From Halorubrum californiense DSM 19288 (lineage in GTDB: Archaea; Halobacteriota; Halobacteria; Halobacteriales; Haloferacaceae), in contig NZ_AOJK01000008.1 of assembly GCF_000336875.1 (NCBI RefSeq), positions 41,137 to 73,987 on the forward strand: DNA of 32,851 bases. Reading direction: 5' to 3'. This document shows, piece after piece, positions 2,768 through 23,753 of the stretch (positions within the stretch are counted from its first letter, which is position 1; each line of letters opens with the position of its first letter). The notes under the pieces are model-generated. The model was not told the origin of the DNA. It saw only the letters and a list, made by a program, of their open reading frames with translations, and made no database searches. The translations under genes were made by a program, and so were the position numbers.

Positions 2768-2807
2768 TGACGGCCCGAGAAAAAAGCGCCGTCGATCCGG
2801 CGGTCCG

Positions 2808-2933: not shown

Positions 2934-2961
2934 GCCGAGGTCCGAGCCGCCCGAGGGCGCC

Positions 2962-2990
2962 CCATATAACCGATGTAAGTTACTATATGG
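2962..2990. promoter_or_regulatory. Inverted repeat upstream of tupA (possible operator)
   Basis: CCATATA (2962-2968) and TATATGG (2984-2990) form a perfect inverted repeat around a 15-base centre, in an AT-rich patch that contrasts with the surrounding GC. The right arm lies 33-39 bases before the tupA start and could overlap the TATA region. A regulator binding here could block transcription of the tungstate-binding protein gene. The general form, two AT-rich half sites upstream of an oxyanion uptake gene, recalls ModE-type sites, but identity with them is not shown. Confidence 0.45.
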
Positions 2991-3022
2991 TTCTAAGTGC
3001 CTGTATTCAGTCACCTACACGT

Positions 3023-8596: not shown

Positions 8597-8609
8597 TCCG
8601 CCCGGAGCG

Positions 8610-8617
8610 CTTATTCG
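8610..8617 (+). promoter_or_regulatory. TATA-like box before the first YdjM-like gene
   Basis: CTTATTCG is centred about 26 bases upstream of the ATG at 8639, giving a leaderless start for the two-gene unit 8639-9997. Confidence 0.45.
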
Positions 8618-8638
8618 ACTCCGAGCGTCAGGACGGGT

Positions 8639-9319: not shown

Positions 9320-9997
9320 ATGCCCTCGACGATCGTTCACGCCGGGTTCGCGCTGCTGCTCGCCACGGGACTGCTCGGGGCGTACTACGACCGGCGGGCG
9401 CTCGCGGTCCTGCTCGTCGTCCTCGTACTCCCGGAGGCAGACAGCTTCCTCGGGGTGGTCATGGCGGGCGCGCACCGCACGGTCGGCCACAACTTCGTCC
9501 TCCCGGCGGTCGCCGCGCTGGCGCTGTACTACGACACCCGCGTCCGGGAGCGGTCGCTGGTCCGCGAACGTCTCTCGCCGCGGTGGGTCGCGGTCGCGTG
9601 GGTCGCTATCTTCGTCCACGGCTTCGCGCACGTCGCGCTCGACTGGACCCACCTCGACGGGGTGAACGCGTTCTGGCCGCTCCGCGACCGCTTCTTCCAC
9701 TTGGACGGAGAGGTCTTCTACTCGACGGCCGACGGGTTCGTCCAGACGTTCGTCGACGTGCGGGTCGACCCGGAGACCGGGACGCGGACCGTCGACGCGG
9801 GGGCGGGCGGTACCAGCGAGTCGGTCCACGTCAGCAATCCCGTCCAGCCGCGCGACCCCGACGTCGACGTCGAGGAGCCGGTCGACCGGCGGTTCCCGGT
9901 CGCGAACAGCGGGTGGCGGCTCTACCTGATCGGACTGGGGTTGTTCGCGGCCGTCGCCCGGCGGTTCCAAGGCGACGGCGTCGGGGACGGCGACTAA
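9320..9997 (+). CDS. Membrane-bound metal-dependent hydrolase (YdjM/PF04307-like)
   Basis: The 225-residue product has the features of the YdjM family of predicted membrane-bound metal-dependent hydrolases: MPSTIVHAG at the very start with His7, a conserved acidic LPEADSF after the second hydrophobic stretch, the AHRTVGHNF motif, and a later HGFAHVALDWTH motif inside or next to a membrane segment. About four to five membrane segments are visible, and a last one follows an Asp/Pro-rich outer loop near residues 165-195. Substrates of this family are unknown; phospholipase-like activity has been proposed for relatives. The start codon touches the stop of the upstream paralogue, so the pair is an operon. 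Confidence 0.75.
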   Translation: MPSTIVHAGFALLLATGLLGAYYDRRALAVLLVVLVLPEADSFLGVVMAGAHRTVGHNFVLPAVAALALYYDTRVRERSLVRERLSPRWVAVAWVAIFVHGFAHVALDWTHLDGVNAFWPLRDRFFHLDGEVFYSTADGFVQTFVDVRVDPETGTRTVDAGAGGTSESVHVSNPVQPRDPDVDVEEPVDRRFPVANSGWRLYLIGLGLFAAVARRFQGDGVGDGD

Positions 9998-10081
9998 TAC
10001 GGGGCTGAGATCGCGTGACTGCGCCGCCCGTAACATGGTATGACCGCAGGGTAAACGGCTCCGGGACCCTACTCGGACACG

Positions 10082-11686
10082 ATGTCACCCCAACCGGATG
10101 CGGGCCTGTCGGACGCGGCCGAACCGCTCGCCGGGGAGTCGATCGCGGTCGTCGGCGCCGGCTTCGGTGGGCTCTCGGCGGCCTCGTACCTCGCCGACGC
10201 GGGGGCGGACGTGACGCTGTTCGAGCGGAACGAACACCCCGGCGGGTACGCGGGACGCATCGAGCGCGACGGCTTCCGCATCGACACCGGGCCGTCGTGG
10301 TACCTCATGCCGGAAGTGTTCGACCGCTTCTTCGAACAGTTCGGGCGGTCGACCGACGACTACTACGACCTGATCGAACTCGACCCGCTGTACGAGGTGA
10401 TCTGGAAGGACGGCGACCGCGCGTCGATGCCGGCCGACCGCGCGGGGCAGCAGGCGCTGTTCGAGTCGTACGAGGAGGGTGCGGGCGACGTGCTCGACGA
10501 GTACCTCGCGGACGCCGCCGAGGCGTACGAGCTGGGGATGGACCGGTTCGTCTACCCCAGCCGGTCGCGGCTACGTGACATGGTCGATACCGACGTGCTC
10601 CGGTCCGGCCGCGCGCTCCCGAAGCTCCGCGAGATGGACGAGTACGTCGGCGACTACTTCGAGAGCGAGAAGCTCCGGCAGATCGCGGAGTACAAGCTCG
10701 TCTTCCTCGGCGGGTCGCCGTACAACACGCCGGCCATCTACACGCTGATGAGCCACGTCGACATGAACCTCGGCGTCTACCACCCGGTCGGCGGGATCGC
10801 GAGCGTCGTCGACGCGATGGCCGACCTCGCGCGAGAGCTCGGCGTCTCGATCCGGACGAGCGAGCCGGTGACCGCGATCGAGCCGTCGGTCCCGGCCGCG
10901 ACGCCGACGTTCGTCGTCGAGACGGAGCGCCGCGGAGGGGACGGCGACATGGCCGCGACGGCGCCGCAGTCGAGTCGCTTCGACCGCGTCGTGGCGAACG
11001 CGCCCCCGCCGCACGTCGAGCGCGACCTCCTGCCCGCGGGGATCGTCGACCGCGAGTCGTACTGGGAGTCGCGGACGTACGCGCCCTCGGCGTACCTCTC
11101 GTACATCGGCGTCGAGGGCGACGTGGATCTGGACCACCACACGCTGGTGTTCCCGACCGACTGGCGGCCGCACTTCGACGACATCTTCGACGAGCCGGCG
11201 TGGCCGGACGACCCCGCGTACTACGTTCACGTCCCGTCGAAGACGGACCCGGAGGCGGCCCCCGACGGCCACGAGGCCGTCTTCCTCCTCGTCCCGCTGG
11301 CCGCCGGCTTGGACGACGACCCGGAGACGCGCGAGCGGTTCCGCGACGTAGTGTTCGACGACTTGGCGGAGCACGCCGGCGTCGACTTCCGCGACCGGAT
11401 CGTCTTCGAGGAGACCGCCTGCGTCTCCGACTTCCGGCAGCGGTTCAATGCCCCCCGCGGCACCGCGCTGGCGCTGTCGCACACGCTCGAACAGACGGGG
11501 CCGCTGCGCCCCGCTCACCGAGCGCCCGGGGTCGAGGGGCTCTACTACGTCGGGGCGTACACCAACCCCGGCATCGGGATGCCGATGTGTCTGCTCAGCG
11601 GCGAGCACGCCGCCGAGGCGGTCGTCGAGGACGCGACCGGCGGCGGCGTGCTCCCGTCAGTCGTCTCGACGTCGACGCTGCGGTGA
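10082..11686 (+). CDS. crtI: CrtI-type phytoene/carotenoid desaturase
   Basis: The 534-residue flavoprotein has the CrtI pattern: an N-terminal FAD-binding motif (VVGAGFGGLSAASYLADAG), the CrtI-typical ERNEHPGGYAGR and DTGPSWYLMPEVF, the middle segment GGSPYNTPAIYTLMSHVD, the YHPVGGI stretch, and the C-terminal second FAD contact YYVGAYTNPGIGMPMCLLSGEHAAE. Such enzymes introduce double bonds into phytoene on the way to lycopene and the red bacterioruberin pigments of haloarchaeal membranes. Genomes of this group often carry several paralogues, so which desaturation step this one does is not certain. No phytoene synthase, lyeJ or cruF gene is next to it here. The gene converges on the PAS protein gene with only 24 bases between stops. 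Confidence 0.88.
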   Translation: MSPQPDAGLSDAAEPLAGESIAVVGAGFGGLSAASYLADAGADVTLFERNEHPGGYAGRIERDGFRIDTGPSWYLMPEVFDRFFEQFGRSTDDYYDLIELDPLYEVIWKDGDRASMPADRAGQQALFESYEEGAGDVLDEYLADAAEAYELGMDRFVYPSRSRLRDMVDTDVLRSGRALPKLREMDEYVGDYFESEKLRQIAEYKLVFLGGSPYNTPAIYTLMSHVDMNLGVYHPVGGIASVVDAMADLARELGVSIRTSEPVTAIEPSVPAATPTFVVETERRGGDGDMAATAPQSSRFDRVVANAPPPHVERDLLPAGIVDRESYWESRTYAPSAYLSYIGVEGDVDLDHHTLVFPTDWRPHFDDIFDEPAWPDDPAYYVHVPSKTDPEAAPDGHEAVFLLVPLAAGLDDDPETRERFRDVVFDDLAEHAGVDFRDRIVFEETACVSDFRQRFNAPRGTALALSHTLEQTGPLRPAHRAPGVEGLYYVGAYTNPGIGMPMCLLSGEHAAEAVVEDATGGGVLPSVVSTSTLR

Positions 11687-11710
11687 GCGATTCCCCGGGC
11701 GTCGCCCGCG

Positions 11711-12262
11711 TCACCGCGTCGAGTCTCCCCTCCCGTTCGCCGCGTCGAGCGGCTCAGGCTCCTGGACGGCGATCCAGTGCGTGACCGTGCCCGCGTCGCC
11801 GAACAGCGGTCGCAGCGAGACGCGGTTCGCGAACGGGGTGCCGTCTCGCCGCCGATTGCGGAATTCGACGGCGACCCGCGACCACGTCGAGAGCGCCTCG
11901 CGGACGTCGGCGCGGGCGTCCGCGTCGGCGTCGGGGCCCTGAAACAGCCGGGGGTTCCGACCGCGGAGCTCGTCGAGCGCGTAGCCGGTCCACTCGCGGA
12001 ACCAGCGGTTGACGTAGACGATGGGCGTGTCGCGGTACGCCGGGCCGGTGAGCGTGAGTCCGAGGGGGAGGTCGTCGAGCGCGCGGACGCGGTCGACGAG
12101 CATCGCCTCGCGCTCGGTCCGGTCGGCGGGGTGCTCGGAGTCGGCCGGGTCCGAGTCGACATCGAGGTCGTGCTCGTCGGTCAGCGCCGAGACCCGCGTC
12201 CGGAAGGCGCCGCGGTCGGCGTCGATCGCCGCGAGGACGTCGCGTCGGAGCGTCACGCGCAC
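11711..12262 (-). CDS. Single-domain PAS/LOV-like protein lacking the LOV cysteine
   Basis: The 183-residue product has an N-terminal helical part (1-60) and one PAS domain at about 65-170. The domain is of the LOV type: VNRWFREWTGYALDELRGRNPRLFQG carries the GxNCRFLQ-like helix, with Asn103, Arg105 and Gln108 kept but Pro104 where the photoactive Cys would be. The later FANRVSL (Asn146) and the closing IAVQEPE (Gln167) also match flavin-contact positions. No kinase, cyclase or DNA-binding domain is attached. It might bind flavin as a redox sensor, or another ligand, but cannot form the LOV cysteinyl adduct. The start is GTG at 12262; another GTG two codons further in is possible. It sits tail to tail with the carotenoid desaturase gene. 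Confidence 0.75.
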   Translation of the reverse strand: MRVTLRRDVLAAIDADRGAFRTRVSALTDEHDLDVDSDPADSEHPADRTEREAMLVDRVRALDDLPLGLTLTGPAYRDTPIVYVNRWFREWTGYALDELRGRNPRLFQGPDADADARADVREALSTWSRVAVEFRNRRRDGTPFANRVSLRPLFGDAGTVTHWIAVQEPEPLDAANGRGDSTR

Positions 12263-12380
12263 GCTTGGTCGCGCGGCGACAAGCCGCTGTCGGTCGCCAG
12301 CGGCGGGGGACGGCGACGCGGGTCCGACCCGGATCGCGGACGCGGCGTCGGCACCCGATCCGCGGGAATCAGCCGTGGCG

Positions 12381-12388
12381 TTTATTAC
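12381..12388 (+). promoter_or_regulatory. TATA-like box of the lactate permease unit
   Basis: TTTATTAC lies in an AT-rich patch and is centred about 27 bases before the ATG at 12412. Transcription should therefore begin at or next to that ATG, leaving about 95 transcribed bases before the permease start. Confidence 0.55.
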
Positions 12389-12411
12389 ATAGATAATTCA
12401 CATAGACCGAC

Positions 12412-12510
12412 ATGAGTCGACGGAGAAAGTCGGCGGACGGCGCTCGGTTGCTTCGGACCGCGGCGGCGAGGGAACGTCGCGGCCGCGACGCGAGGGGTGA
12501 ACGACGATGA
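12412..12510 (+). CDS. Possible 32-residue Arg-rich leader peptide overlapping lctP
   Basis: An ATG at 12412 opens a 32-codon frame rich in arginine (starts MSRRRKSADGARLL) whose TGA stop shares the bases ATGA with the permease start at 12507. The TATA-like box 27 bases upstream would put the transcript start at this ATG, so ribosomes could enter here without a leader and be handed to the permease. On the other hand the peptide resembles nothing known, and a good ribosome binding site (GAGGGGTGA, 12492-12500) already serves the permease. It may simply be part of a 5' untranslated region. Confidence 0.35.
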   Translation: MSRRRKSADGARLLRTAAARERRGRDARGERR

Positions 12511-14267
12511 CGCTCGGCGCGAGCGCGCCGCTGGCGCTGGTGCCGCTCGTCGTCGTCGCCGCGCTGCTCGTCGGCCTGCTGTGGCCGGCGTCGCGGGCGA
12601 TGCCGGTCGCGTGGCTGGCCGCCGCGGCGGTGGCGTTCCTCGCGTGGGGGATGCCCGTCGAGTGGATCCTCGCGGCCTCGGTCAACGGCGCGATGGCGGC
12701 CGTCGAGATCCTCTGGATCGTGTTGGGCGCGCTGGTGCTGCTGTACACCCTGATGAACTCCGGCGCGGTCGACCGGATCAACGCCGGCTTCGCGTCGATA
12801 AGCGACGACCGGCGCGTCCAGGTCGTGCTGCTCGGGTTCTTCCTCGCGACGTTCATCGAGGGCGTCGCCGGCTTCGGCACGCCCGCGGCCGTCGTCGCGC
12901 CGCTGCTCTTGGCGCTCGGGTTCCCCGCGTTCGCCGCGGTCGTCGCCGCGCTGATCGGCCACGCGGTCGCGACCGTCTTCGGCGCGGTGGGCACGCCGAT
13001 CATCGTCGGATTCGAACAGCCGCTCGACGCGGTCAGCGGGGCGATCACCGGCGGGGGCTTCGAGTCGGTGGGCGCGTACGCGACCGCGGCCGGCGGGTGG
13101 GCCGCCGTGTTCAACGGGCTTCTCGGGCTGTTCATCCCCTTCATCGCGGTGGCGATGGTCGTGTACTTCTTCGGCGCGGTCGACCCCGACGAGCGCTCGC
13201 TCGGGCCGGCGCTCGCGGTGGCGCCGCTGTGCCTGTTCGCCGGGGTCGCGTTCGCGGTGCCGTACGTCGCGGCGGCGTGGTTCGTCGGCCCGGAACTGCC
13301 GTCGCTGATCGCGTCGATGGTCGGCGGCGGCGCCGTCGTCGCGGTCCTGCGAGCCGGCTACCTGCTCCCCGACGAGGAGTGGACGTTCCCGCCCCGCGAG
13401 GCGTGGCCGGACCACTGGGTCGGGAGCATCGAACCCGGCAGCGAGATGGCCGGCGCCGCGGCCGCGACGGGCGGCGGGGGAACGGCCGGTGGGGAAACGG
13501 GCGGCGTCGACGACGCCGAGATGTCGCTGCTGCGCGCGTGGTCGCCGTACGTCGCGCTCGTCGTCCTGCTCATCGGGACCCGCGTTATCGACCCGATCGC
13601 GACGTTCCTCCAAGAGGGGCCGGGGATGACGATCGCCGTCTCCGGCGTCCTCGGCACGACCATCGACGGGGCGATCGGCTGGGCGTACGTGCCCGGGACG
13701 TGGCTGCTCGTCAGCGCGCTGATCGCGGTGCCGGTGTTCGGGATGTCGGCGGACGAGGTGACGAGCGCGTGGCGCGAGGCGGCCGGGAAGATCGTCTCGC
13801 CCGCGGTCTCGCTCGTCTTCGTCATCGCGATGGTCGAGGTGATGCTCCAGACCGCCGCCCACCCCGGCGCGACCGCGGACGGCAGCATGATCGTCGTCCT
13901 CGCGGACGCGACCGCCTCGACGTTCGGCGCCGCGTACCCGCTGTTCGCGCCCGTGGTCGGCACCCTCGGCGCGTTCATCGCGGGGTCGATCACCGTGAGC
14001 AACGTGACATTCGCGGCGTTCCAGTTCGAGATCGCCCGGGAACTCGGCCTCTCGACGCAGCTGCTCGTCGGCGCGCAGACGATCGGCGCGGCGATCGGTA
14101 ACACGATCGCGATCCACAATGTGATCGCCGCGCTCGCGACGGTCGGGCTCGTCGGGAAGACCGGGCGGGTCATCCGGCTGAACCTGCTCCCGGTCGCCTA
14201 CTACGTCGGGGTCGGCGGACTGCTGACGGCGGGGTTCGTCTACCTGCTGTTCCCGACGCTGTTCTGA
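12507..14267 (+). CDS. lctP: L-lactate permease (LctP family)
   Basis: The 586-residue product is an integral membrane transporter of the lactate permease family, with about twelve to fourteen hydrophobic segments. Typical stretches are EILWIVLGALVLLYTLMNSGAV, FIEGVAGFGTPAAVVAPLL and the AVGTPIIVGFEQP segment in the first half, and TVSNVTFAAFQFEIA followed by GAAIGNTIAIHNVIAA near the end. Family members take up lactate or glycolate together with protons. A central Gly/Ala-rich loop (about residues 310-335) looks disordered. A ribosome binding site, GAGGGGTGA, ends 6 bases before the ATG, which fixes the start. A possible leader frame overlaps it by four bases. A 9-base inverted repeat follows the stop. 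No lactate dehydrogenase genes are next to it in this window. Confidence 0.9.
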   Translation: MTLGASAPLALVPLVVVAALLVGLLWPASRAMPVAWLAAAAVAFLAWGMPVEWILAASVNGAMAAVEILWIVLGALVLLYTLMNSGAVDRINAGFASISDDRRVQVVLLGFFLATFIEGVAGFGTPAAVVAPLLLALGFPAFAAVVAALIGHAVATVFGAVGTPIIVGFEQPLDAVSGAITGGGFESVGAYATAAGGWAAVFNGLLGLFIPFIAVAMVVYFFGAVDPDERSLGPALAVAPLCLFAGVAFAVPYVAAAWFVGPELPSLIASMVGGGAVVAVLRAGYLLPDEEWTFPPREAWPDHWVGSIEPGSEMAGAAAATGGGGTAGGETGGVDDAEMSLLRAWSPYVALVVLLIGTRVIDPIATFLQEGPGMTIAVSGVLGTTIDGAIGWAYVPGTWLLVSALIAVPVFGMSADEVTSAWREAAGKIVSPAVSLVFVIAMVEVMLQTAAHPGATADGSMIVVLADATASTFGAAYPLFAPVVGTLGAFIAGSITVSNVTFAAFQFEIARELGLSTQLLVGAQTIGAAIGNTIAIHNVIAALATVGLVGKTGRVIRLNLLPVAYYVGVGGLLTAGFVYLLFPTLF

Positions 14268-14270
14268 CGG

Positions 14271-14302
14271 CGCTCCGGAGGGAACTGCGGCGGTCCGGAG
14301 CG
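14271..14302 (+). terminator. Hairpin after lctP
   Basis: CGCTCCGGA (14271-14279) and TCCGGAGCG (14294-14302) form a perfect 9-base inverted repeat with a 14-base loop, 3 bases after the permease stop. There is no T run after it, so a terminator or RNA-stability role is only likely from position. Confidence 0.4.
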
Positions 14303-14408
14303 GGCCGGCGGCGGTCCGAGCGGATTCGGACTCGGCGCTCGGCCGCGGTACGTTGTCGCTGACTGAAACGAAGGTTATCCGTGTCCGGTCCAGAGGGGAG
14401 GACGACCG

Positions 14409-15953
14409 ATGCGAGACAGCACCGCCCTCGTCGCCGTCGCCCTGCTCGTCGCGCTCGCCGGCTGCGGCGGGCTCGGCGGAGAGCTGTCCGGGCCCGTCGG
14501 AGCGCCGTCGCCGTCGATCGACACCGTCGACGCGCCCGAGTCGCTCGGCCACGACGACCGGGCGACGGTCGCGGCGACCGCGCGGTGGGAGGGGCTGGCG
14601 GACGAGGGCGCCGACTCCGCGGACGGGAGCGGCGACGCCGCGGGCGGGGGGCGTTCCAACGCCACGCTCGACCCGGTTCGGGTGACGGTCCGCGTCGGCG
14701 ACGCGACGCTGCTCTCGGGGAACCGGTCCGTCCCCGCCAACGGAACGATGACCGTCCGGACCGAGGTCGACGCCGCGGCGCTCGATCCGGGCGAACACGA
14801 GATCAGGGTGACCGTCGGAGAGGCCACCGCGACCCGCACCCTCGCCGTCGAGGAGGCCCGGGCGGCGACGTTCGCCGTCTCCGCAATCGACGCGCCCGAG
14901 AGCGTGGACTACGGCGAGGACCTCGCGGTGACGGCGACGGTGACTAACACCGGCGACTTGGCGGGCGAGCAGACCGTCCGGATCCGGTACGGGACCGGTA
15001 CGAGCGCGAACCGGACGGTCGCGCTCGACGGCGGCGCCGAGGCGGCGGTGGCCGTCACGTTCGCGGACGTGCGGTTCGACGGCGGGGACTACCCGGTCGT
15101 CGTGATGACCGCGAACCGGACGCGCGAGCGGCCCGTGTCGGTGGTCCACCCGAGCGCGTACGGGAAGACGACGCTGGCTCTCTATGTCGACGACGAGGCG
15201 GTCGACCGGAACGTCTCGGGCGTCGTCGCGGCCGCGACGGGCTACTGGGAGCGCAACGACGAACGCTACCTCGGCTACCCGGTCGCGTACGAGCGCGTCG
15301 ACGACGCGGACCGGGCCGACATCGTCCTCCGGTTCGACCGCGTGGAGCGGTGCGGCGTCGAGGGCAACGACACGCGCTACTTCGGCTGCGCCGACCTCCT
15401 CGTCGACGAGCCGCGGACGCCGATGACCGCGACCGTCGATCCCCGGATCTCCGACGCGGAGATGAACGCGACGATCATCCACGAACTCGGCCACGTTCAG
15501 GGGCTCGAACCCGGCGAGGAGCCCGCCGGGCTGATGAACGCGACCAGCACGCTCGCGACGCATCGGCCGGTGAAGGTCCACCTGCGCGCCGACGACGGCG
15601 CGGTCATCGGCCCCGTCGAGGACGAGGTGACCGCGGCGCTCGACTACTTCGCGGCGCGCGAGGATGTCGCCGGGAGCGACGGGTTCGCGTGGGAGTTCGT
15701 CGACAGCGCGCGCGAGGCGCACGTCCAGATCACCTACGACGAGCGCGGCGAGGTCTGCTTCGTCGACGACGGGGGCTCCTGTACGGTCGACGGCGAGTAC
15801 TACGGGCAACAGGACGTGCGGCTGGAGGAACTGGACGAGGACGTCGTCGCGTGGCACGTCGGCGCCTCCCTCGCGCCGGTGTTGTTGAAGGAGGTGCCGC
15901 CGGAGCTCACGGGCGAATCGGAGCGGCGGGGGCGGGAGGACTGGCCGGAGTAG
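14409..15953 (+). CDS. Lipoprotein with CARDB-like domain and HELGH zinc metalloprotease motif
   Basis: The 514-residue product has a signal peptide ending in the lipobox ALAGC (Cys19), so it is probably anchored on the outer membrane face. Two beta-rich, adhesion-like parts follow, the second (about residues 160-245, TVTNTGDLAGEQTVRI) resembling CARDB domains. The catalytic-looking part has HELGHVQGL at 358-366 and LMN a dozen residues on, like the zinc motif and Met-turn of metzincin peptidases. The usual third ligand in HExxHxxGxxH/D is not seen at its place: the sequence continues EPGEEPAGLMN. Three cysteines around residues 315-330 and two near 450 could form disulfides. The start is backed by GGGGAGG about 8 bases upstream. 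Substrate unknown; it may be inactive. Confidence 0.7.
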   Translation: MRDSTALVAVALLVALAGCGGLGGELSGPVGAPSPSIDTVDAPESLGHDDRATVAATARWEGLADEGADSADGSGDAAGGGRSNATLDPVRVTVRVGDATLLSGNRSVPANGTMTVRTEVDAAALDPGEHEIRVTVGEATATRTLAVEEARAATFAVSAIDAPESVDYGEDLAVTATVTNTGDLAGEQTVRIRYGTGTSANRTVALDGGAEAAVAVTFADVRFDGGDYPVVVMTANRTRERPVSVVHPSAYGKTTLALYVDDEAVDRNVSGVVAAATGYWERNDERYLGYPVAYERVDDADRADIVLRFDRVERCGVEGNDTRYFGCADLLVDEPRTPMTATVDPRISDAEMNATIIHELGHVQGLEPGEEPAGLMNATSTLATHRPVKVHLRADDGAVIGPVEDEVTAALDYFAAREDVAGSDGFAWEFVDSAREAHVQITYDERGEVCFVDDGGSCTVDGEYYGQQDVRLEELDEDVVAWHVGASLAPVLLKEVPPELTGESERRGREDWPE

Positions 15954-16015
15954 GAGAAAGAAGTGGGAGGAGAGCGGCGCGAGAACTGCTCGAAGACGGA
16001 CCACGTCACAGCGAA

Positions 16016-16030
16016 CTGACACGCTGTCAG
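16016..16030. promoter_or_regulatory. Palindrome upstream of the restriction-modification operon
   Basis: CTGACACGCTGTCAG is a 15-base inverted repeat (6-base arms, 3-base centre) placed 20 bases before the TATA box at 16051. That is where an activator or repressor of the methyltransferase-helicase operon could bind. It is 60 bases after the preceding stop, so a hairpin at the end of that transcript is the other reading. Confidence 0.45.
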
Positions 16031-16050
16031 CCCCTCGCAGTCAGCCAAGC

Positions 16051-16060
16051 GTATAAATAG
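16051..16060 (+). promoter_or_regulatory. TATA box of the restriction-modification operon
   Basis: GTATAAATAG is the best TATA box in the window. It is centred about 35 bases before the ATG at 16090, so the transcript should start about 8-10 bases before that codon. Confidence 0.65.
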
Positions 16061-16089
16061 CGATACAGCGAACCCCCGTCCAACGAAAC

Positions 16090-19000
16090 ATGTCTGTTCG
16101 GACCTCGATCGGCCCCCTCCAGTCTATCGAAAACGGCGGGGACGTCATCAGCTATCTGCTCGAACCGGACGGGATGAACTACGGGTCGTACGTCGAGGTT
16201 CCGAGCGGCATTCAGCGGAACCGGGGTCGAAACGACTGGTACGAGGCGCATCTCGTCGATGCCGACGGCGACGGCATCATCCGGTACATCGAACTCGAAC
16301 GGTCGGACGAGACGCCGTCGTTCAGCGACCTGAAACGGCAGTTGAAGCGTCACGGGAGTCCGATCGACGAGTTGTTCACCGTGGTCGCGTATCGGACCGG
16401 CCCGGATCCGCTCACGAGTCCGGTCGACGACGACCTCACGTTCCTCTTCATCGACGAGCAGTTCTCCTCGGAAGCCGTCGAAGTCACGTTCGACCTCAAG
16501 TACTTCACCGTCGAGCGGTCCGACGTCGAGCCGGCGTACGTCGACTTTCTCGGCGACCTGTCGGTCAACTCGGCGCAGGGTCGGACGAGCCTCGAACGGG
16601 ACGTCGAGGACGTGTTCTCGATCCGGGAGATCACGCGGAGCTTCTACGAGGAGTTCGGGGAGATATTCCGCGGGACGCTACAGGGCGCGATTCACGACCT
16701 CGAAGCCCCGGACGAAAACCTCAACGCCTACACACGCACGGTGGTCAACCGCGTGCTGTTCCTCATGTTCATCGAGGAGAAAGGGTGGCTCGACGGCGAC
16801 ACGGACTACGTCGAGAACCGGTACGAGGCCGCGACGGCGGACCCGGACAAACACCTCTATCACGACCTCTTCGAGCCGCTGTTCTTCGAGGCGCTCTCGA
16901 ACACCGGCACGACCGACGACGAGTTCCTCGGGCGGATTCCGTTCCTGAACGGGGGGCTCTTCGAGCGCGCGGCCATCGAGCGCGACGTCACCATCGACGA
17001 GGCGTTCTTCGACGCCCTGCTCGACCCCGAAGAGGACGAGTCGGGCGAGCCGAAGGGGTTCCTGCGTCGGTACAAGATCTCGCTGCGGGAGTCGAACCCG
17101 AGCGAACAGGAGTTGGTGGTCGACCCCGAGTTTATCGGACGTATCTTCGAGATGTTCATGCAGGCGGACGAGCGCTCGGAGGTGGGCGCGTTCTACACGC
17201 CGAAACCGATCACCACGTACATGACCAAGAACGCGCTCAAACAGCACCTGCTGGAGCGGACCGATCTCACCCACGAGCAGGTCGTCTCGCTCGTGAGCGA
17301 CCACGCGGCGCCGGAGTCGTTGACGCCGGCGCAGGCCGACGCGGTCGACGACGCGCTGCGGTCGGCGAGCGTCCTCGACCCCGCCGTGGGCAGCGGCGCG
17401 TTCGTCATCGCGATGCTGGAGGAACTCGTCGCCGTCGCGGAGGCGGTCGACGCGACGCGCGACGACGCGGACGCGATGGACCGGTTCGAGCGCAAGCAGG
17501 AGTTCATCGCGGACAACCTCTACGGGGTCGACATCGACGCCGGGGGGATCGAGCTGTGTAAGTTCCGGGTGTGGCTCCACCTGATGCAGGACCTGAACGT
17601 CTCCCACGAGGAGTTCCTCGACCGGAACGAGGAGCTCGCGCTGCCCAACCTCGGCTTCAAGTTCTTCGTCGGCAACAGCCTCGTCGGCGAACACGACCCC
17701 ACCCGGATCGACGTCAGGTCGTATCAGGAGACGCTCACCGGCGGCCTCGAATCGACGCTCGACGAGATCCACGAGACGCGAAGCGACTTCCTGACCGCCC
17801 ACGGCGACGAGAAGGCGGCCCTCGGCGAGCGCTTGGAGGACCTGACCGATCGGCTGGAGACCCAACTCGCGGTCGAAGGCGGCGACGACTGGATGAACGA
17901 GGTCGCCGCGGAGGCCGGGTCGACGTTCGCGTGGACGTCGATGATCCCCGAGGTGATCCTGGACGGCGGCTTCGATATCGTGATCGGGAATCCGCCGTAC
18001 GAAGGCTGGTCACAGCAGGGGTACGTCGGCGAACTCGCGACGTTCTACGACGAGCAGTACGACTTCTACGAGACGATCCCCGGAATGCGCCACGACCTCT
18101 ACCAGAAGTTCATTATCCGGGGGTGGGAGCTGACGGCCGAGGAGGGCGTTCTCTCGTACATCACGAGTAACACGTTCTACACGATCGGATCCAAGCAGAG
18201 CAGTCGGCGGCTCATGCAGCAGCACGAACTCAACGAACTGATCAGAGCGAATCCGAACACGTTCGATGCGAGCGTGAACCCCGCGATATTCGCGCTCCGC
18301 AAAACGTCTCCGCCGTCCGATCACCGGATATCGTACGTCGACGCGTCGGAAACGCCGATAAACGAGTACCGGACCCTCGTGGGGGAGTTGGGGAATTTCC
18401 GAGAACAGCGTCCCAGTTCGGACGAGGAGGCTACGACGCGGCTCGATACACTGGAGCCGACCACCGGGTACGCCGTCGATCTGGACGTCTATCGGAATAC
18501 GATACGAAACGCGTTTTTCGAGCCGAACGAGGAGAACATGCGGCTCTTCGAGCGGTTCATGGAGCGGATTCAGGACCTCTCGACGGAGTGGGAAGCCGAG
18601 ATTCAGGACTCCACCAGCCTCGAAAACAGCTTGGACAGGATCCGAAGGGACCACCTCTCACAGCTGACGGAGGGGTCGGTGACGATCTTGGGTCTACTCA
18701 CTCTCGGGGGAGTCGGGATACAGACCGGCGACGTCGAAGAGTACACCGCGTATCTCGACGGCAGTGAGGACGCCGAAAAGATCAAACAGCGAAACGGGGA
18801 CGAGTTCGAGTACGTCGAGAAAAACGACGAAACGTTCCGCTATCGCTCCAGAGTGATTCAGCAACGACACGTTCGTGACCCGTCGACGCTCTCGGAACAG
18901 GAGAAGCGATCCGGCATCGACGGGCCGTGGGACGGCCAGACGTGGGTCCCGATCGAGAAGGGGTTCAAGCAGGGAGAGACGTATTATAAAGAGACCTACG

Positions 19001-19443
19001 AGTACGTGAACTGGTCGGAAGACGCCGTGGAGCGGATCGAAGCCGACGGGATGATCAAGAACCGAGAGTACTCCTTTGAGGAAGGAATACTGATTTCGAC
19101 CGGCGGATTCTCGGATCTCGCAGTCCGCTACACGACGGATCGGCTAATCGGGGCGCCCCTGATCATCTTCACGACGAACACGGAACTGGTATCGCCGAAG
19201 TACCTCGTCGGGGTACTACTGTCCGAAACGGTCAACGATATCGCGAAAACGTTCCTGAACAGTTCCGGGATGCAGACGACCGACGTTCGTCACATCCCGA
19301 TCGTCATTCCGACCCCGGAGCAGAAATCGTCCGTGGAGAGCCTCGTCGACGAGGCGATCGATTGTCGGAACGGCAGCGCGAGTCGAAGCATCGACGCGGT
19401 GCGGTCGGATATCGAGGAAATCGTCGAGGAACTGTACTCCTAA
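16090..19443 (+). CDS. Eco57I-type DNA N6-adenine methyltransferase with C-terminal specificity region
   Basis: This 1117-residue protein has a helical N-terminal half (RTVVNRVLFLMFIEEKGWL near 215-240, as in type ISP and IIG enzymes), then a gamma-class adenine methyltransferase: GAFYTPKPITTYM at about 366, the AdoMet-binding motif I DPAVGSGAF at about 430, LYGVDIDAGGIELCK, and catalytic motif IV NPPY at 634-637. The last 400 residues should hold the target-recognition domain (closing motif like HIPIVIPTPEQK). No nuclease motif is visible, so it probably methylates the site while the next gene cuts. From about 18200 the bases turn AT-richer (60-base lines of 50-52% GC at 18481 and 18781, against 82% at 17341), which suggests the specificity part was exchanged. 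The next gene starts one base after its stop. Confidence 0.9.
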   Translation: MSVRTSIGPLQSIENGGDVISYLLEPDGMNYGSYVEVPSGIQRNRGRNDWYEAHLVDADGDGIIRYIELERSDETPSFSDLKRQLKRHGSPIDELFTVVAYRTGPDPLTSPVDDDLTFLFIDEQFSSEAVEVTFDLKYFTVERSDVEPAYVDFLGDLSVNSAQGRTSLERDVEDVFSIREITRSFYEEFGEIFRGTLQGAIHDLEAPDENLNAYTRTVVNRVLFLMFIEEKGWLDGDTDYVENRYEAATADPDKHLYHDLFEPLFFEALSNTGTTDDEFLGRIPFLNGGLFERAAIERDVTIDEAFFDALLDPEEDESGEPKGFLRRYKISLRESNPSEQELVVDPEFIGRIFEMFMQADERSEVGAFYTPKPITTYMTKNALKQHLLERTDLTHEQVVSLVSDHAAPESLTPAQADAVDDALRSASVLDPAVGSGAFVIAMLEELVAVAEAVDATRDDADAMDRFERKQEFIADNLYGVDIDAGGIELCKFRVWLHLMQDLNVSHEEFLDRNEELALPNLGFKFFVGNSLVGEHDPTRIDVRSYQETLTGGLESTLDEIHETRSDFLTAHGDEKAALGERLEDLTDRLETQLAVEGGDDWMNEVAAEAGSTFAWTSMIPEVILDGGFDIVIGNPPYEGWSQQGYVGELATFYDEQYDFYETIPGMRHDLYQKFIIRGWELTAEEGVLSYITSNTFYTIGSKQSSRRLMQQHELNELIRANPNTFDASVNPAIFALRKTSPPSDHRISYVDASETPINEYRTLVGELGNFREQRPSSDEEATTRLDTLEPTTGYAVDLDVYRNTIRNAFFEPNEENMRLFERFMERIQDLSTEWEAEIQDSTSLENSLDRIRRDHLSQLTEGSVTILGLLTLGGVGIQTGDVEEYTAYLDGSEDAEKIKQRNGDEFEYVEKNDETFRYRSRVIQQRHVRDPSTLSEQEKRSGIDGPWDGQTWVPIEKGFKQGETYYKETYEYVNWSEDAVERIEADGMIKNREYSFEEGILISTGGFSDLAVRYTTDRLIGAPLIIFTTNTELVSPKYLVGVLLSETVNDIAKTFLNSSGMQTTDVRHIPIVIPTPEQKSSVESLVDEAIDCRNGSASRSIDAVRSDIEEIVEELYS

Positions 19444-19444
19444 G

Positions 19445-22400
19445 ATGTCCGAACAAGACTGGAGCGGCTACTCCGACGTCCTCGACAATCGAAACTACAA
19501 CGTCGAAGACCGTGCCAACGCTCTCGCACGCGAGGCCGACACGGTCAAAATCGCCGTCGGCTACTTCTTTCTCGGCGGATTCGACCTCCTCAAGGAGAAC
19601 CTCCGGGACGCCGACAAGGTCGAGATACTGGTCGGCACCGACACCGACCAGCGCACCATCGAGGAGTTGGAGCGCGGGTTCGCGGACGACCTCGACGAGT
19701 ACGACAGAGACGAGGCCGAAGACGGGATCGTCCGCCTGTACGAGCTAATTCACGAGGAGAAGGTCGACGTGCGCGTGTACGACGACGCGCGCTTCCACCC
19801 GAAGCTCTACCTGTTCAGGGACCCCGCCGGATCGCCCGACCTCGGCCACGCGATCATCGGCTCCTCGAACCTCTCGCCCAGCGGCCTCCGGGGCAACGTC
19901 GAACTCAACGTCGAGAAGAAGGACAACGCCACGATCCGGTATCTGGAGTCGTGGTTCGACGACATCTGGGCGGAAGCGAGCGAGTTCGACACCGACCTGA
20001 TGACCGCCGCGATCGAGCGCTCGCAGTTCGCCGACGCGCTCCCCGACCTCGACGAGGGCGACGGGGGCGAAGCGGACGGCGACGACGATGATGCGTCCGA
20101 GGTCGACGCCGTCGAAACGATCTCGCCGTACGAGGCGACGAAGCGGTTCATCGTCGAACAGTTCGATCGGGACGTCCGCGAGGGGACCCTCCTCGAAGAC
20201 ATCTCCGGCGACTACGAGGAGCAGCTCACCGCCTTCCAGCAGGACGCGTTCCGGGCCGCACGCCGCCCGCTGGAGAAGTACAACGGCGTGGTCCTCGCGG
20301 ACAGCGTCGGCCTCGGCAAGTCGTACATCGGCGCGCCGCTCGTCCAAGACGCCACGACCTCCCGCGACGAGGTGCTGATCATCGCGCCGAACCGACTCAA
20401 GCCGATGTGGAAACGCGAACTCCTCGACGCCGAGACGGGGGAGTTTCCGACGACCGCCGAGAAGACGTTCATCAGTTTCAACAAGCTGTCCCGGCTCTCC
20501 GAGCAGGAGATACAGCGGTTCCGCGGCGTGGACGTCGTGCTCGTCGACGAGGCGCACAACCTCCGGAACACGGGGACACAGCGCTACGACAAACTCCAGT
20601 CGATCGGTCGACAGGGCAAGAAGTTCGTGATGCTCACCGCCACGCCCATCCACAACTCCGTCCGCGACGTCGACAACCTGATCAAGGTGTTCGCCGACGA
20701 CGGCGACTTCGACATCGAACTCGGCGGCATGTCTCCCAGCGAGATTTTCAAGGAGTACGACCGGCTTTCGGGCGATTTCAACGACGGCGTCGTCGACGAC
20801 GGCAACGACGGCGACGACGGCGACGCCGAAGAGACGACCGCTGACCGACGTCGCCTCTCGGAACTCGAAGCGAACATCGAGTCGATACTGCGAGAGGTGA
20901 TACTCTCGCGCGACCGGAAGTACATTCTCGACAACTACGACGACATCACTATCGGCGGCCGACAGATCAGCGTCCCCGAGCGACAGCCCCGTCTGATAAC
21001 CCCGGACGACCCGCGCCTCGACGAACTGTACAGCGACATCGTCGACGCCGTCATCGGGACGGACGAGGTCGAGGACTCCGGCCTCAACATCCCGTACGTC
21101 AGCGCGGACCGCTACGACGCGGACGGCGACGAGAAGGAGGAGCTCATCATCGAGTATCAGAACGCGAGCATCCTGATGCTGGTAAACCTGCTCAAGCGGC
21201 TCGAAAGCAGCCTCGCGGCCTTCGAGGACTCCGTCGACCGACTCATGGAACGCGAGCGTATCACTCGCCACATCGCGACGGGCGACCTCGAAGACGCGGC
21301 GGCGAGACGGGACGCGGTCGAGCAGATACGAGACACGTTCGACGAGGGGTTCACGCGAGACATCGACTTTGAGGACGTCGCCGACGCGATCACGCAGGTC
21401 GGCGCCGACAAGCGCGAGGAGATCGTCGCGGATATCGAGGAGGACCTCGCCGTTCTCGAACGGATCAGAGAACAGGCCCGGGACGCGCTCCAAACCGACG
21501 AGGGAGGCCGAACGAAGGACGCGAAAGCCGAGCGGCTTCGGCTGCTGATCGACCGCGAACTCACCGGCGAGAAGGTGATCCTCTTCAGCCAGTACGTGCC
21601 GACGGTGACGCACCTCTTCGAACAGATCACCGGCGAAGACGCGGCGCACACACAGGTTGCGACTATCGACGACGCGCCGGGCGGGCCGACCGTCGGCTAC
21701 GTACACGGCGGGAGCGGGTACAGCGAGCGCATCGTCGAGCGATTCGCCCCGGAAGCGCAAGACGCGGACGTGGGCGAGACCGAGGAGATCGATATCCTCC
21801 TCGCCACGGACGTGCTCGGCGTCGGACAGAACCTTCAAGACGCCCGCGTGCTCGTCAACTACGACCTCCACTGGAACCCGATGAAGATGGAACAGCGGAT
21901 CGGTCGTATCGACCGCATCACGACGCGACACGATGCGCTGTGGATCTACAACTTCGCACCGACCGGCGATCTGCGGCGACAGCTCGGTCTCATCGAGCGG
22001 ATCGAAGAGAAGATCCAAAACATCGCCAGCACCTTCGGACACGCCGCGCCGATCTTAGACAACGCGGAAGAGCAGGTTCACAAGACGCTCATCACCTACG
22101 AGCGACTCGAAGCGGGAAGCGACGAGTACGGAGACGGTCGGCTCGAAGGGATCGGCTCGAAGTACGACGATCTCAGGAACGCGGTCCAGTCGTTCTGTGC
22201 GGAGAACGACGTCGACATCGATGAACTTCGCCAGACGAGGGAGATGGTCGACTCCCGCTCGGAGCCACAACACTTCCTCACGCCGGGCGAGTCGAACAAC
22301 TACGTTACGCTCGCCCACCTGACGCACAGCAGCGGTCGGACGGAGTGGCGAACGACCGTGTTCGACTCCGAGCGACTACAGCGAACGACGATCGGCGGAC

Positions 22401-22873
22401 AGGCGATATTCACCCAGTTCCCCCGACTCGAAACGGACGACGTTCGCGTGTTCGAGACGATCGCTTCGCCGGACACGACCCGGCATCCGGTTCCGGAGGA
22501 CGACCTCGGTGAGCTGCGTGATTTCGCCCGAGAGCTGGGGAATCCGAACACGTGGGAGAACGACATACTGAGCCGCCAAGGCGGGCAGAGCGAGGTCGTC
22601 ACGAACATCGTTCAACTGTGCCGGAAGCTCGCCGAGAGCGACGAGGCGGTCAGCGACGAGGCCGCGGAGATCGTCGAACTGCTGAACGAACACGAGGTCA
22701 GCGACTGGGCGGAAAACCAGCTGCGGACCACCTATCGTCGCCGTCGGCGATACGGAACGACCGGGACGGTTCAGCGACTTCATCACAAGCTGACCGAAGA
22801 GATCGAACTCGTCGACCCCGAGCGGGTGACCGAGACCGATGTCGCACTCGCGGGACGGCTCTCACCGGACTGA
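19445..22873 (+). CDS. Phospholipase D-type nuclease fused to SNF2-family helicase
   Basis: The 1142-residue protein combines a nuclease and a DNA motor. Residues about 20-180 form a PLD-like domain with a single HxK motif (HPKLYLF, His118 and Lys120) followed by the IIGSSNLS stretch (137-144); one copy implies a dimer, as in BfiI. An acidic linker (about 203-225) leads to the helicase: Q-like LTAFQQDAF at 261, Walker A DSVGLGKS at 286-293, Walker B VDEAHNLRN at 367-375, motif III LTATPIHN at 397-404, and C-terminal motifs V-VI around 782-825 (ATDVLGVGQNLQ and QRIGRIDRI). Helicase-nuclease proteins of this sort act as ATP-dependent restriction subunits. The C-terminal 300 residues are unassigned. 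Its one-base spacing from the methyltransferase gene shows a single operon and probably a joint system. Confidence 0.88.
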   Translation: MSEQDWSGYSDVLDNRNYNVEDRANALAREADTVKIAVGYFFLGGFDLLKENLRDADKVEILVGTDTDQRTIEELERGFADDLDEYDRDEAEDGIVRLYELIHEEKVDVRVYDDARFHPKLYLFRDPAGSPDLGHAIIGSSNLSPSGLRGNVELNVEKKDNATIRYLESWFDDIWAEASEFDTDLMTAAIERSQFADALPDLDEGDGGEADGDDDDASEVDAVETISPYEATKRFIVEQFDRDVREGTLLEDISGDYEEQLTAFQQDAFRAARRPLEKYNGVVLADSVGLGKSYIGAPLVQDATTSRDEVLIIAPNRLKPMWKRELLDAETGEFPTTAEKTFISFNKLSRLSEQEIQRFRGVDVVLVDEAHNLRNTGTQRYDKLQSIGRQGKKFVMLTATPIHNSVRDVDNLIKVFADDGDFDIELGGMSPSEIFKEYDRLSGDFNDGVVDDGNDGDDGDAEETTADRRRLSELEANIESILREVILSRDRKYILDNYDDITIGGRQISVPERQPRLITPDDPRLDELYSDIVDAVIGTDEVEDSGLNIPYVSADRYDADGDEKEELIIEYQNASILMLVNLLKRLESSLAAFEDSVDRLMERERITRHIATGDLEDAAARRDAVEQIRDTFDEGFTRDIDFEDVADAITQVGADKREEIVADIEEDLAVLERIREQARDALQTDEGGRTKDAKAERLRLLIDRELTGEKVILFSQYVPTVTHLFEQITGEDAAHTQVATIDDAPGGPTVGYVHGGSGYSERIVERFAPEAQDADVGETEEIDILLATDVLGVGQNLQDARVLVNYDLHWNPMKMEQRIGRIDRITTRHDALWIYNFAPTGDLRRQLGLIERIEEKIQNIASTFGHAAPILDNAEEQVHKTLITYERLEAGSDEYGDGRLEGIGSKYDDLRNAVQSFCAENDVDIDELRQTREMVDSRSEPQHFLTPGESNNYVTLAHLTHSSGRTEWRTTVFDSERLQRTTIGGQAIFTQFPRLETDDVRVFETIASPDTTRHPVPEDDLGELRDFARELGNPNTWENDILSRQGGQSEVVTNIVQLCRKLAESDEAVSDEAAEIVELLNEHEVSDWAENQLRTTYRRRRRYGTTGTVQRLHHKLTEEIELVDPERVTETDVALAGRLSPD

Positions 22874-22893
22874 ACCCGGACCGGATCGGTCAT

Positions 22894-23214
22894 TTACTCC
22901 CGGTACCGCGCTTCGAGGTCCTCGGTGAAGCGGACGTATCGGCGTTCGACGCGCTTGAACTCCGTCCCGGGGATGGCGAGCGAGTCCGCCACGGAACTGC
23001 TGTCGCGCACCGTCTCCTCGACTCGCTCCGTGGTGACCAGCCCCTTCGATTCGAGGCCGTCGATCACCGGCTCGACCCCTTCCTCGCCCCCGAGAACCCG
23101 GAGGTCTTCGACGGGCAGCCCCTCGTCGGTCATGAACTCGAACGTGTCGCGCTCGATCGACTCGCCCGCTTCGAGGACCCCTTCGACGAGCCGTCTTTCG
23201 GCGTCGGTCAACAC
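22894..23214 (-). CDS. Small hypothetical protein, possibly helix-turn-helix-like
   Basis: The 106-residue product is not recognised. It is acidic and largely helical; LTDAERRLVEGVLEAGESI followed by VEPVIDGLESKGLVTTERV looks like the helices of a winged helix-turn-helix, but this is weak. The start is GTG at 23214: the frame has a stop ten codons upstream and no other start between. A TATA-like TTTTATCC on the minus strand near 23341 could be its promoter, about 125 bases upstream. It is convergent with the nuclease-helicase gene, 20 bases apart, and lies between that system and tRNA-Ala, so it may belong to the island; a regulator of the system is a guess. Confidence 0.55.
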   Translation of the reverse strand: MLTDAERRLVEGVLEAGESIERDTFEFMTDEGLPVEDLRVLGGEEGVEPVIDGLESKGLVTTERVEETVRDSSSVADSLAIPGTEFKRVERRYVRFTEDLEARYRE

Positions 23215-23681
23215 GGTCGATTCGCCGTCGCTCGCGGTTTCACTTCAGCGTTCGTGCGTGAGGGTCGAGCGGCCGCCTCACTGTCGTCGAAACACGGGAC
23301 AGCCGAGGTCGACGAATATCACCGAACTCCGACAGATCGGATAAAACGTGAACGCGCGAAGTTGACGAGCGTGGCCGCCGGCAGGCTATGGCTTACACTT
23401 GTTACCGCAGTCTAAGCACGTTCTCCCGCTTCGCAGTGTGAGTCCTTTCGTATCCTGACTACCACAACGCGGGCACACTGGATACCCCATATCTCGAATA
23501 GGTAGATAATGTATCATAAAACCACTCTCACGGAGCGGCAGCGGGAGCAATGTACTACGTGTTTGAAAACACAGTCAGAGCTGGTTGATTCGAGTTGACT
23601 CGCGGGGGTCCCGCGAACGAGCGCAGCGAGTGAGTGGGACTACGCGAGGAAATGACTGAGCGAACGAACTGAGCGAAGAAG
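23215..23681. other. Non-coding, partly AT-rich stretch between the island and tRNA-Ala
   Basis: No gene is supported here. Bases 23440-23575 are clearly AT-richer than the flanks, with many stops and a short hairpin (GTGTTT, GA, AAACAC) at about 23560-23573. From 23608 on, short words such as GAGCGAACGA, CTGAGCGAA and GAGCGCAGCGAG recur, including an inverted GTCCC/GGGAC pair. A partial copy of the tRNA 3' end lies at 23593-23607. The stretch looks like a decayed junction of an integrated element. Confidence 0.55.
23593..23607. repeat. Partial copy of the tRNA-Ala 3' end (possible attachment-site remnant)
   Basis: AGTTGACTCGCGGGG at 23593-23607 matches AGTGGACTCGCGGGG at 23680-23694, the 3' end of the tRNA gene and two bases of flank, at 14 of 15 positions, in the same orientation and 87 bases apart. 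Repeats of a tRNA 3' end are what tyrosine integrases leave. The match is short, so chance is possible. Confidence 0.45.
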
Positions 23682-23753
23682 TGGACTCGCGGGGATTTGA
23701 ACCCCGGGCCTTCCCCGTGCCAGGGGGATGATCTACCACTGATCTACGAGCCC
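23682..23753 (-). tRNA. tRNA-Ala (anticodon GGC)
   Basis: On the minus strand the 72 bases fold as a full cloverleaf: acceptor GGGCTCG with CGAGTCC, D arm GATC/GATC, anticodon stem TCCCC/GGGGA around the loop CTGGCAC, and T arm CGGGG/CCCCG around TTCAAAT. The anticodon GGC reads alanine GCC (and GCU) codons. The acceptor contains a G3-U70 pair and a discriminator A, the known alanine identity signals. CCA is not encoded. No intron is present. The 3' end points toward the restriction-modification region. Confidence 0.95.

What the first reader, a model, noticed from the sequence alone, without database searches (positions are those of the whole stretch)
16090..22873. Two-gene system: N6-adenine methyltransferase plus PLD nuclease-SNF2 helicase
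The pair is one operon (one base apart). The first protein has methyltransferase motifs DPAVGSGAF and NPPY and a specificity-like C-terminus but no nuclease; the second has a PLD nuclease motif (HPKLYLF) and a complete SNF2 helicase. In type ISP enzymes nuclease, helicase, methyltransferase and recognition parts share one chain, and in CglI/NgoAVII-type systems a PLD nuclease and a helicase are separate chains. This arrangement is between the two: nuclease and motor fused, methyltransferase and recognition apart. It is neither BREX nor DISARM, since no PglZ, BrxC or DUF1998 gene is present. I infer an ATP-dependent restriction system in which the helicase travels from an unmethylated site.
Basis: partly seen in the sequence, partly recalled or inferred. 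Interest (0 to 1): 0.8.

Follow-up and report, generated by a model that had tools for sequence, protein, structure and literature searches.

The report
Two-gene ATP-dependent restriction-modification cassette
In a salt-loving archaeon, one gene makes a DNA-marking enzyme that reads a target sequence and the next makes a motor with a built-in DNA cutter; the pair looks like a compact, widespread immune system against foreign DNA whose target-reading part is exchanged between species while the cutter stays the same.

Summary
In detail: an intact gamma-class (Eco57I/PglX-like) adenine methyltransferase (16090-19443) and an intact PLD-nuclease/SNF2-motor protein (19445-22873) lie one base apart behind one TATA box. 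They form a ~6.9 kb insert in a housekeeping region; relatives have the empty site. All six full-length close homologue pairs in 391 haloarchaeal genomes are adjacent, with no shared third gene. 44 of 53 distant, mostly bacterial PLD-SNF2 loci also carry the methyltransferase within 1.5 kb.

The best new evidence on mechanism: the methyltransferase C-terminal block (aa ~641-1117) has been exchanged between species while its core and the whole helicase were not (AU test p ~1e-92). So target recognition sits in the methyltransferase and the nuclease-motor follows whatever target is installed, as in Type I/III/ISP systems.

The novelty claim is weaker than stated. 'Modification plus recognition in one chain, motor plus nuclease in the other' is the Type III division of labour, and HKD/PLD-SNF2 fusions beside N6-methyltransferases are published for Type-2 BREX-related systems, there with DUF499 and DUF3780. 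Here the pair stands alone: a new variant of a known kind, an unnamed minimal two-gene form. Its biochemistry is untested.

The parts
15954..22892 (+). inserted two-gene cassette (~6.9 kb), boundaries approximate
   Evidence: In G037, G017 and G023 the flanking peptidase gene and the 106-aa gene are 16-22 bp apart (empty site); G050 has the pair at the same place; lower GC over the pair
16052..16060 (+). TATA box (TATAAATAG), 38 bp before the first ATG; only promoter-like element proposed for the operon
   Evidence: sequence; conserved in G050
16090..19443 (+). gamma-class N6-adenine DNA methyltransferase with specificity block, 1117 aa
   Evidence: Pfam Eco57I 7.7e-26; fold BrxX Z 27.8, CamA Z 28.8, LlaBIII Z 24.0
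16090..16614 (+). N-terminal domain (aa ~1-175), place of the nuclease in MmeI/DrdV but no conserved PD-(D/E)XK motif; role open
   Evidence: poorly modelled (pLDDT under 50)
17377..17403 (+). methyltransferase motif I DPAVGSGAF (aa 430-438)
   Evidence: D430, G434, S435, G436 and F438 invariant in 20 pairs
17989..18000 (+). methyltransferase motif IV NPPY (aa 634-637)
   Evidence: N-P-P invariant in 20 pairs, last residue Y or W
18010..19440 (+). C-terminal target-recognition block (aa ~641-1117), exchanged between species
   Evidence: identity drop 91% to 38% and AU test
19445..22873 (+). PLD nuclease-SNF2 motor protein, 1142 aa
   Evidence: Pfam; PADLOC C3a139 HKD+Snf2 2.7e-77; model
19445..19984 (+). 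PLD nuclease domain (aa 1-180), H118xK120, GSSN 139-142, E153
   Evidence: PLDc_2 1.7e-12, RE_NgoFVII 2.4e-5; residues invariant
20132..21964 (+). SNF2 motor (aa ~230-840): Walker A K292, DEAH 368-371, TATP 398-401, QRxGRxxR 817-824; helical insert ~550-680
   Evidence: fold Z 24.1, rmsd 3.0, 394 residues to the INO80 ATPase
21992..22870 (+). C-terminal, mostly helical region (aa ~850-1142), function unknown
   Evidence: model only, low confidence in parts

Best explanation
A compact, mobile, ATP-dependent restriction-modification system of two subunits. The methyltransferase binds a target through its C-terminal block and methylates an adenine (N6), most likely on one strand of an asymmetric site, as single gamma-class enzymes of this fold do. 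When the site is unmodified the methyltransferase recruits or switches on the partner; the SNF2 motor moves along double-stranded DNA, and its N-terminal PLD nuclease, probably as a dimer, cuts foreign DNA. Shown by sequence: intact catalytic sites, operon, co-inheritance, insertion as a unit, specificity block exchanged without change in the restriction subunit. Inferred: physical complex, one-strand m6A, translocation, cleavage, antiviral role.
For: Intact and invariant catalytic residues of methyltransferase, PLD and motor. One-base spacing and shared TATA box. Six of six close full-length pairs adjacent in 391 genomes; 44 of 53 distant loci. Core and helicase share one tree, C-terminal block rejects it with delta lnL 97; breakpoints just after NPPY and at the end of the gene; same contrast in other clades. 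No third shared gene. Empty site and plasmid copy. Fold of the methyltransferase like DNA-bound BrxX, CamA and LlaBIII and of the motor like SNF2 dsDNA translocases. PLD nucleases driven by SF2 ATPases cut DNA in CglI/NgoAVII (PMC4267653) and SauUSI (PMC7913695).
Against: No biochemical, methylome or phage data. The N-terminal methyltransferase domain and the C-terminal helicase region are unexplained and poorly modelled. G000 also carries DUF499 and PglZ genes elsewhere, so help in trans is not excluded there, although DUF499 is absent from G050, G187 and G403. Block exchange by itself would also fit a system that regulates rather than restricts.
Confidence: 0.78

Rival explanations
1. BREX-like exclusion: the methyltransferase marks self and helps recognise phage DNA, and the motor blocks replication without sequence-directed cutting; the PLD domain is secondary.
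For: Methyltransferase fold matches BrxX over 625 residues; helicase profile relatives include BrxH.
Against: PLD catalytic residues are invariant in all sequences compared, and PglZ, BrxC and other BREX genes are absent from the cassette.
Confidence: 0.1
2. A partial system: the pair needs further components encoded elsewhere (for example DUF499, DUF3780 or PglZ proteins in trans).
For: G000 has a DUF499 gene on contig C25 and a PglZ gene on C44; published Type-2 BREX-related systems join the same two kinds of protein to DUF499 and DUF3780 (PMC12839542).
Against: DUF499 absent from G050, G187 and G403 and from 34 of 41 mostly bacterial genomes with the pair; no third gene shared by the six loci; the pair inserts alone.
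Confidence: 0.08
3. Reverse logic (phage-growth-limitation-like or Type IV-like): the nuclease-motor attacks methylated DNA, or the pair mainly regulates host genes through changing methylation.
For: SauUSI, a PLD-SF2 enzyme, targets modified DNA (PMC7913695); block exchange would also diversify a methylome.
Against: SauUSI carries its own recognition domain for modified DNA; here the restriction chain shows no exchanged block of its own and is always kept with the methyltransferase in the six close pairs.
Confidence: 0.05
4. Chance neighbours: an orphan methyltransferase beside an unrelated repair helicase.
For: Orphan methyltransferases are common in archaea (PMC10609329).
Against: Linkage across families and across Archaea and Bacteria, one-base or overlapping spacing, identical core and helicase trees.
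Confidence: 0.02

Closest known systems
Type-2 BREX-related (DUF499-centred) systems (PMC12839542)
   Same: HKD/PLD nuclease fused to the N-terminus of a Swi2/Snf2 helicase, beside an N6-adenine methyltransferase
   Different: Published systems also need DUF499 ATPase and DUF3780; neither was found in the window, and DUF499 is absent from the genomes G050, G187 and G403 that hold the pair. The curated model for the PLD-helicase of an anti-phage system (NF042964) matches at 148 bits against a cut-off of 1100
Type III restriction-modification (Mod/Res)
   Same: Two genes; methyltransferase plus recognition in one chain, ATP-driven motor plus nuclease in the other; exchange of target recognition re-aims both activities
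   Different: Here a gamma-class Eco57I/PglX-like methyltransferase, a SNF2 motor and an N-terminal PLD nuclease; Type III has a different methyltransferase order and a C-terminal PD-(D/E)XK nuclease (established knowledge; PMC4267653 table 2 for the nuclease)
Type ISP (LlaGI, LlaBIII)
   Same: Methyltransferase plus target-recognition half has the same fold (4xqk Z 24.0, rmsd 5.5, 517 residues); ATP-driven motor and nuclease act with it
   Different: All in one chain with a different nuclease and an SF2 motor of another kind; here two chains with a PLD nuclease
CglI/NgoAVII (PMC4267653)
   Same: PLD nuclease powered by an SF2 ATPase in a restriction-modification operon; fused PLD-ATPase homologues reported
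   Different: Separate C5-cytosine methyltransferase, recognition by a B3 domain in the nuclease chain, Z1-type ATPase; here adenine methyltransferase carries recognition and the motor is SNF2-type
DISARM class 1 and ARMADA (PMC12458937)
   Same: RapA/BrxHII-like (DrmD-like) helicase beside a PglX-like methyltransferase
   Different: They also have a YprA-type helicase or DUF1998 module and, in DISARM, a separate PLD protein DrmC; none is present in the cassette
SauUSI (PMC7913695)
   Same: N-terminal PLD nuclease fused to an SF2 ATPase that translocates on DNA
   Different: Single-chain Type IV enzyme with its own SRA domain for modified cytosine; no methyltransferase
PADLOC candidate family C3a139 (HKD+Snf2)
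   Same: Best profile match of the helicase, 2.7e-77 over residues 11-888; all 10 haloarchaeal members of A1 match
   Different: A single-protein candidate model; no description of a two-gene system found under that name

Membership tests
BREX (types 1-6) | PglZ and BrxC/PglY beside the methyltransferase | tested here: not met
   No such domain among window ORFs; the PglZ gene of G000 is on another contig
DISARM class 1 | DrmA/DrmB (YprA-type helicase, DUF1998) and separate PLD DrmC | tested here: not met
   Absent from the window; MZB/DUF1998 genes of G000 lie on other contigs; DrmD model 155 bits against cut-off 610
ARMADA | YprA-like helicase next to the helicase-methyltransferase pair | tested here: not met
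   No such gene in the window
Type-2 BREX-related | HKD-SNF2 helicase fusion plus N6-methyltransferase | tested here: met
Type-2 BREX-related | DUF499 ATPase in the locus | tested here: not met
   Absent from the window; absent from the whole genomes G050, G187 and G403
Type-2 BREX-related | DUF3780 protein in the locus | tested here: not met
   No match among the window ORFs scanned with Pfam; whole genomes not searched for it
Type III RM | Two chains: methyltransferase plus recognition, motor plus nuclease | tested here: met
Type III RM | Type III Mod (beta-class) methyltransferase and Res with PD-(D/E)XK nuclease | tested here: not met
   Gamma-class Eco57I order (motif I before NPPY and the C-terminal block) and PLD nuclease; the ResIII profile touches only the general ATPase core (3.8e-6)
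Type ISP RM | Nuclease, motor, methyltransferase and recognition in one chain | tested here: not met
   Two ORFs; no open frame in any locus matched both profiles
CglI/NgoAVII | C5-cytosine methyltransferase, B3 recognition domain on the PLD chain, Z1-type ATPase | tested here: not met
   Adenine methyltransferase; PLD chain shows no B3 or Z1 domain by Pfam
Type IIG/IIL (MmeI, DrdV) | Active PD-(D/E)XK nuclease at the methyltransferase N-terminus | tested here: not met
   Extra N-terminal domain in that place but no conserved D...ExK in 20 relatives; domain fold itself poorly modelled
Restriction-modification in general | Methylation of a defined site and restriction of DNA lacking it | not testable with these tools
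   Needs methylation calling and restriction assays

The most novel reading that the evidence does not exclude
A distinct, so far unnamed class of ATP-dependent restriction-modification, widespread in archaea and bacteria: one gamma-class, one-strand methyltransferase with a swappable target block licenses a PLD-nuclease/SNF2 translocase, with no DUF499, PglZ or YprA partner. It would be the free-standing core from which the BREX-related, DISARM and ARMADA methyltransferase-helicase pairs were built up, or to which they were reduced.
Probability: 0.45. Interest if true: 0.6.

Novelty: new variant of a known kind. Interest (0 to 1): 0.42.

Why it matters
If it restricts with two proteins alone, it is the simplest form of the helicase-methyltransferase core that recurs in BREX type 3, BREX-related, DISARM class 1 and ARMADA systems, and lets that core be studied without their many partners. 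The exchanged target block gives a direct test: G000 and G050 should have different motifs despite 91% identical methyltransferase cores, G050 and G403 the same or a related motif, and one helicase should serve different specificities.

Tried and rejected
PDB search with the single methyltransferase found nothing at 1e-5; the alignment profile was needed. Viral contigs held no close relative of either protein; with the broad profile they gave many PLD-SNF2 helicases, most without the methyltransferase in the locus, set aside as a different group. Phage records held only partial matches. Literature searches for the family name C3a139 and for a two-gene PLD-SNF2 plus methyltransferase system found no paper describing the stand-alone pair; subscription papers and REBASE entries could not be read, so prior description is not excluded. 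Considered and rejected: DISARM-like remnant (no YprA/DUF1998 or DrmC gene beside it); broken BREX locus (no PglZ/BrxC beside it, and the empty site shows an insert of just this pair); hidden active nuclease in the methyltransferase N-terminus (no ExK). No solved structure was listed for the N-terminal 170 residues or the helicase C-terminus; these parts were barely tested.

Full report
What is there. The first, 16090-19443, is a gamma-class N6-adenine methyltransferase: Pfam Eco57I 7.7e-26, N6_Mtase 6.5e-13, a weak MmeI spacer match; best PADLOC profiles are Type IIG enzymes, then PglX and DrmMI. The second, 19445-22873, has an N-terminal PLD domain (PLDc_2, RE_NgoFVII) and a complete SNF2-type motor. 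Its strongest PADLOC match is the candidate family C3a139 'HKD+Snf2' (2.7e-77, residues 11-888); DrmD, DpdE, PLD_Helicase, BrxH and HmaA profiles match more weakly, and all NCBIfam matches are far below their cut-offs. Stop and start codons are one base apart. A TATA box at 16052 precedes the first ATG by 38 bp and is conserved in the nearest relative.

Setting. The other recognisable genes of the window are housekeeping or unrelated: purH/purN-like and purB-like enzymes, an amine oxidase, a lactate permease, an ABC transporter, glutamate synthase and others. No PglZ, BrxC, DUF1998, DUF499 or DUF3780 domain was found among the 20 other window ORFs scanned. GC falls from 68-73% to 58-66% over the pair. 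In genomes G037, G017 and G023 of the same genus the flanking peptidase gene and 106-aa gene are 16-22 bp apart, which is the empty site; the window carries a ~6.9 kb insert exactly there, and G050 carries the pair at the same site. A tRNA-Ala gene lies 0.5 kb beyond the 106-aa gene. The G333 homologue is on plasmid pNVE500 of Natrinema versiforme, with a site-specific integrase gene nearby. So this is a mobile two-gene cassette.

Do the genes belong together? In 391 haloarchaeal genomes there are six full-length close relatives of the helicase (48-100% identity, window included) and six of the methyltransferase (46-100%). They are the same six genomes, always adjacent with the methyltransferase upstream, in four families. 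A seventh genome, G056, holds only a 106-residue helicase remnant. No third gene is shared by the six loci beyond local synteny of two close pairs. More distant haloarchaeal clades have the same two neighbours, sometimes convergent. In the genome collection, 44 of 53 PLD-SNF2 helicases with at least 1.5 kb of flank on both sides have the methyltransferase within 1.5 kb, mostly in bacteria. 34 of 41 such genomes hold no DUF499 gene and 26 of 41 no MZB/DUF1998 domain; many are incomplete metagenome assemblies, so these counts are indicative.

Which part reads the DNA? This was the decisive computation. Between G000 and G050 the methyltransferase core is 91% identical and the helicase 90%, but the C-terminal ~400 residues of the methyltransferase only 38%. 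Between G187 and G403 the values are 89, 94 and 46%. Between G050 and G403 they are 79, 79 and 71%, so G050 shares its C-terminal block with G403 and everything else with G000. Likelihood tests agree: core and helicase support the same tree, while the C-terminal block rejects it (delta lnL 97, AU p about 1e-92) and supports G050+G403. In 40-residue windows G050 follows G000 up to about residue 640, just after NPPY, then G403 to the end of the gene, then G000 again through the helicase. Other haloarchaeal clades show the same contrast, for example G051-G264 with helicase 96% and block 27%, and G030-G338 with 88% and 53%. This is the pattern of target-recognition exchange, and it says that the nuclease-motor takes its specificity from the methyltransferase. 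That reading is an inference from sequence; it assumes that the restriction half still works after the exchange, which the intact and conserved genes suggest.

Structure. AlphaFold models were built with distant homologues only (methyltransferase mean pLDDT 62.5, helicase 71.4). Methyltransferase residues ~180-1117 align with BrxX on DNA (Z 27.8, rmsd 5.6, 625 residues), CamA on DNA (Z 28.8, rmsd 5.6, 443), LlaBIII (Z 24.0, rmsd 5.5, 517) and MmeI (Z 22.7, rmsd 5.9, 574); the large rmsd values mean a shared architecture rather than a close match. The first ~170 residues are extra relative to BrxX and sit where MmeI and DrdV carry their nuclease. They have no conserved PD-(D/E)XK motif in 20 relatives, and the domain is poorly modelled, so its role is open. 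The helicase core aligns with SNF2 remodellers (Z 24.1, rmsd 3.0, 394 residues). PLD and motor catalytic residues are invariant in 20 pairs and in 27 diverse homologues.

How it most likely works. The methyltransferase binds its site through the C-terminal block; a methylated site is left alone; an unmodified site licenses the SNF2 motor, which translocates and lets the PLD nuclease, probably a dimer, cut. One-strand methylation of an asymmetric site is expected because there is one methyltransferase with one target block and its relatives by fold (BrxX, CamA, LlaBIII, MmeI) work that way (established knowledge and inference). The complex, translocation, cleavage and antiviral effect are inferred.

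Comparison. The closest published set of parts is the Type-2 BREX-related system (PMC12839542), with HKD-SNF2 helicase and N6-methyltransferase but also DUF499 and DUF3780; the DUF499 feature was tested and not met, so I do not file it there. The same helicase-methyltransferase core recurs in DISARM class 1 and ARMADA (PMC12458937). CglI/NgoAVII (PMC4267653) and SauUSI (PMC7913695) show that PLD nucleases driven by SF2 ATPases cut DNA. I found no paper describing the stand-alone pair, but REBASE and subscription journals could not be covered. Verdict: new variant of a known kind, widespread and unnamed; interest moderate, with the exchanged target block giving sharp tests.

Noticed in passing
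window 15954-23753 and loci L305-L317: The stretch between the peptidase gene and tRNA-Ala is a variable insertion site in the genus: contents and lengths differ between genomes, and L306, L312 and L315 carry a second copy of the first ~23 bases (3' end) of the tRNA, as left by integrating elements. The window itself has no such copy.
   Followed up: partly
G000 contigs C25 (142100-143878; helicase hit 134675-135622) and C44 (3158-3655): The host genome appears to hold further defence systems away from the window: a DUF499 gene near another SNF2 helicase on C25 and a PglZ gene on C44.
   Followed up: no
L218-L286 (viral contigs): Many viral contigs encode a full PLD-SNF2-like helicase without the methyltransferase in the locus; possibly phage replication helicases or a different defence group.
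   Followed up: no
L063 (G022): 1549-5343 and 7681-15113: A second, different 1245-aa methyltransferase of the same family lies downstream of the helicase of a methyltransferase-helicase pair, so that one helicase may serve two methyltransferases.
   Followed up: no
L195 (G056): 11987-12463: A 159-residue open frame matching only the last 106 residues of the helicase at 64% identity, with no methyltransferase nearby: a decayed copy.
   Followed up: no
window 12369-16022, minus strand: A 1217-codon open frame opposite real genes (lactate permease and peptidase on the plus strand) is an artefact of high GC, not a gene.
   Followed up: yes
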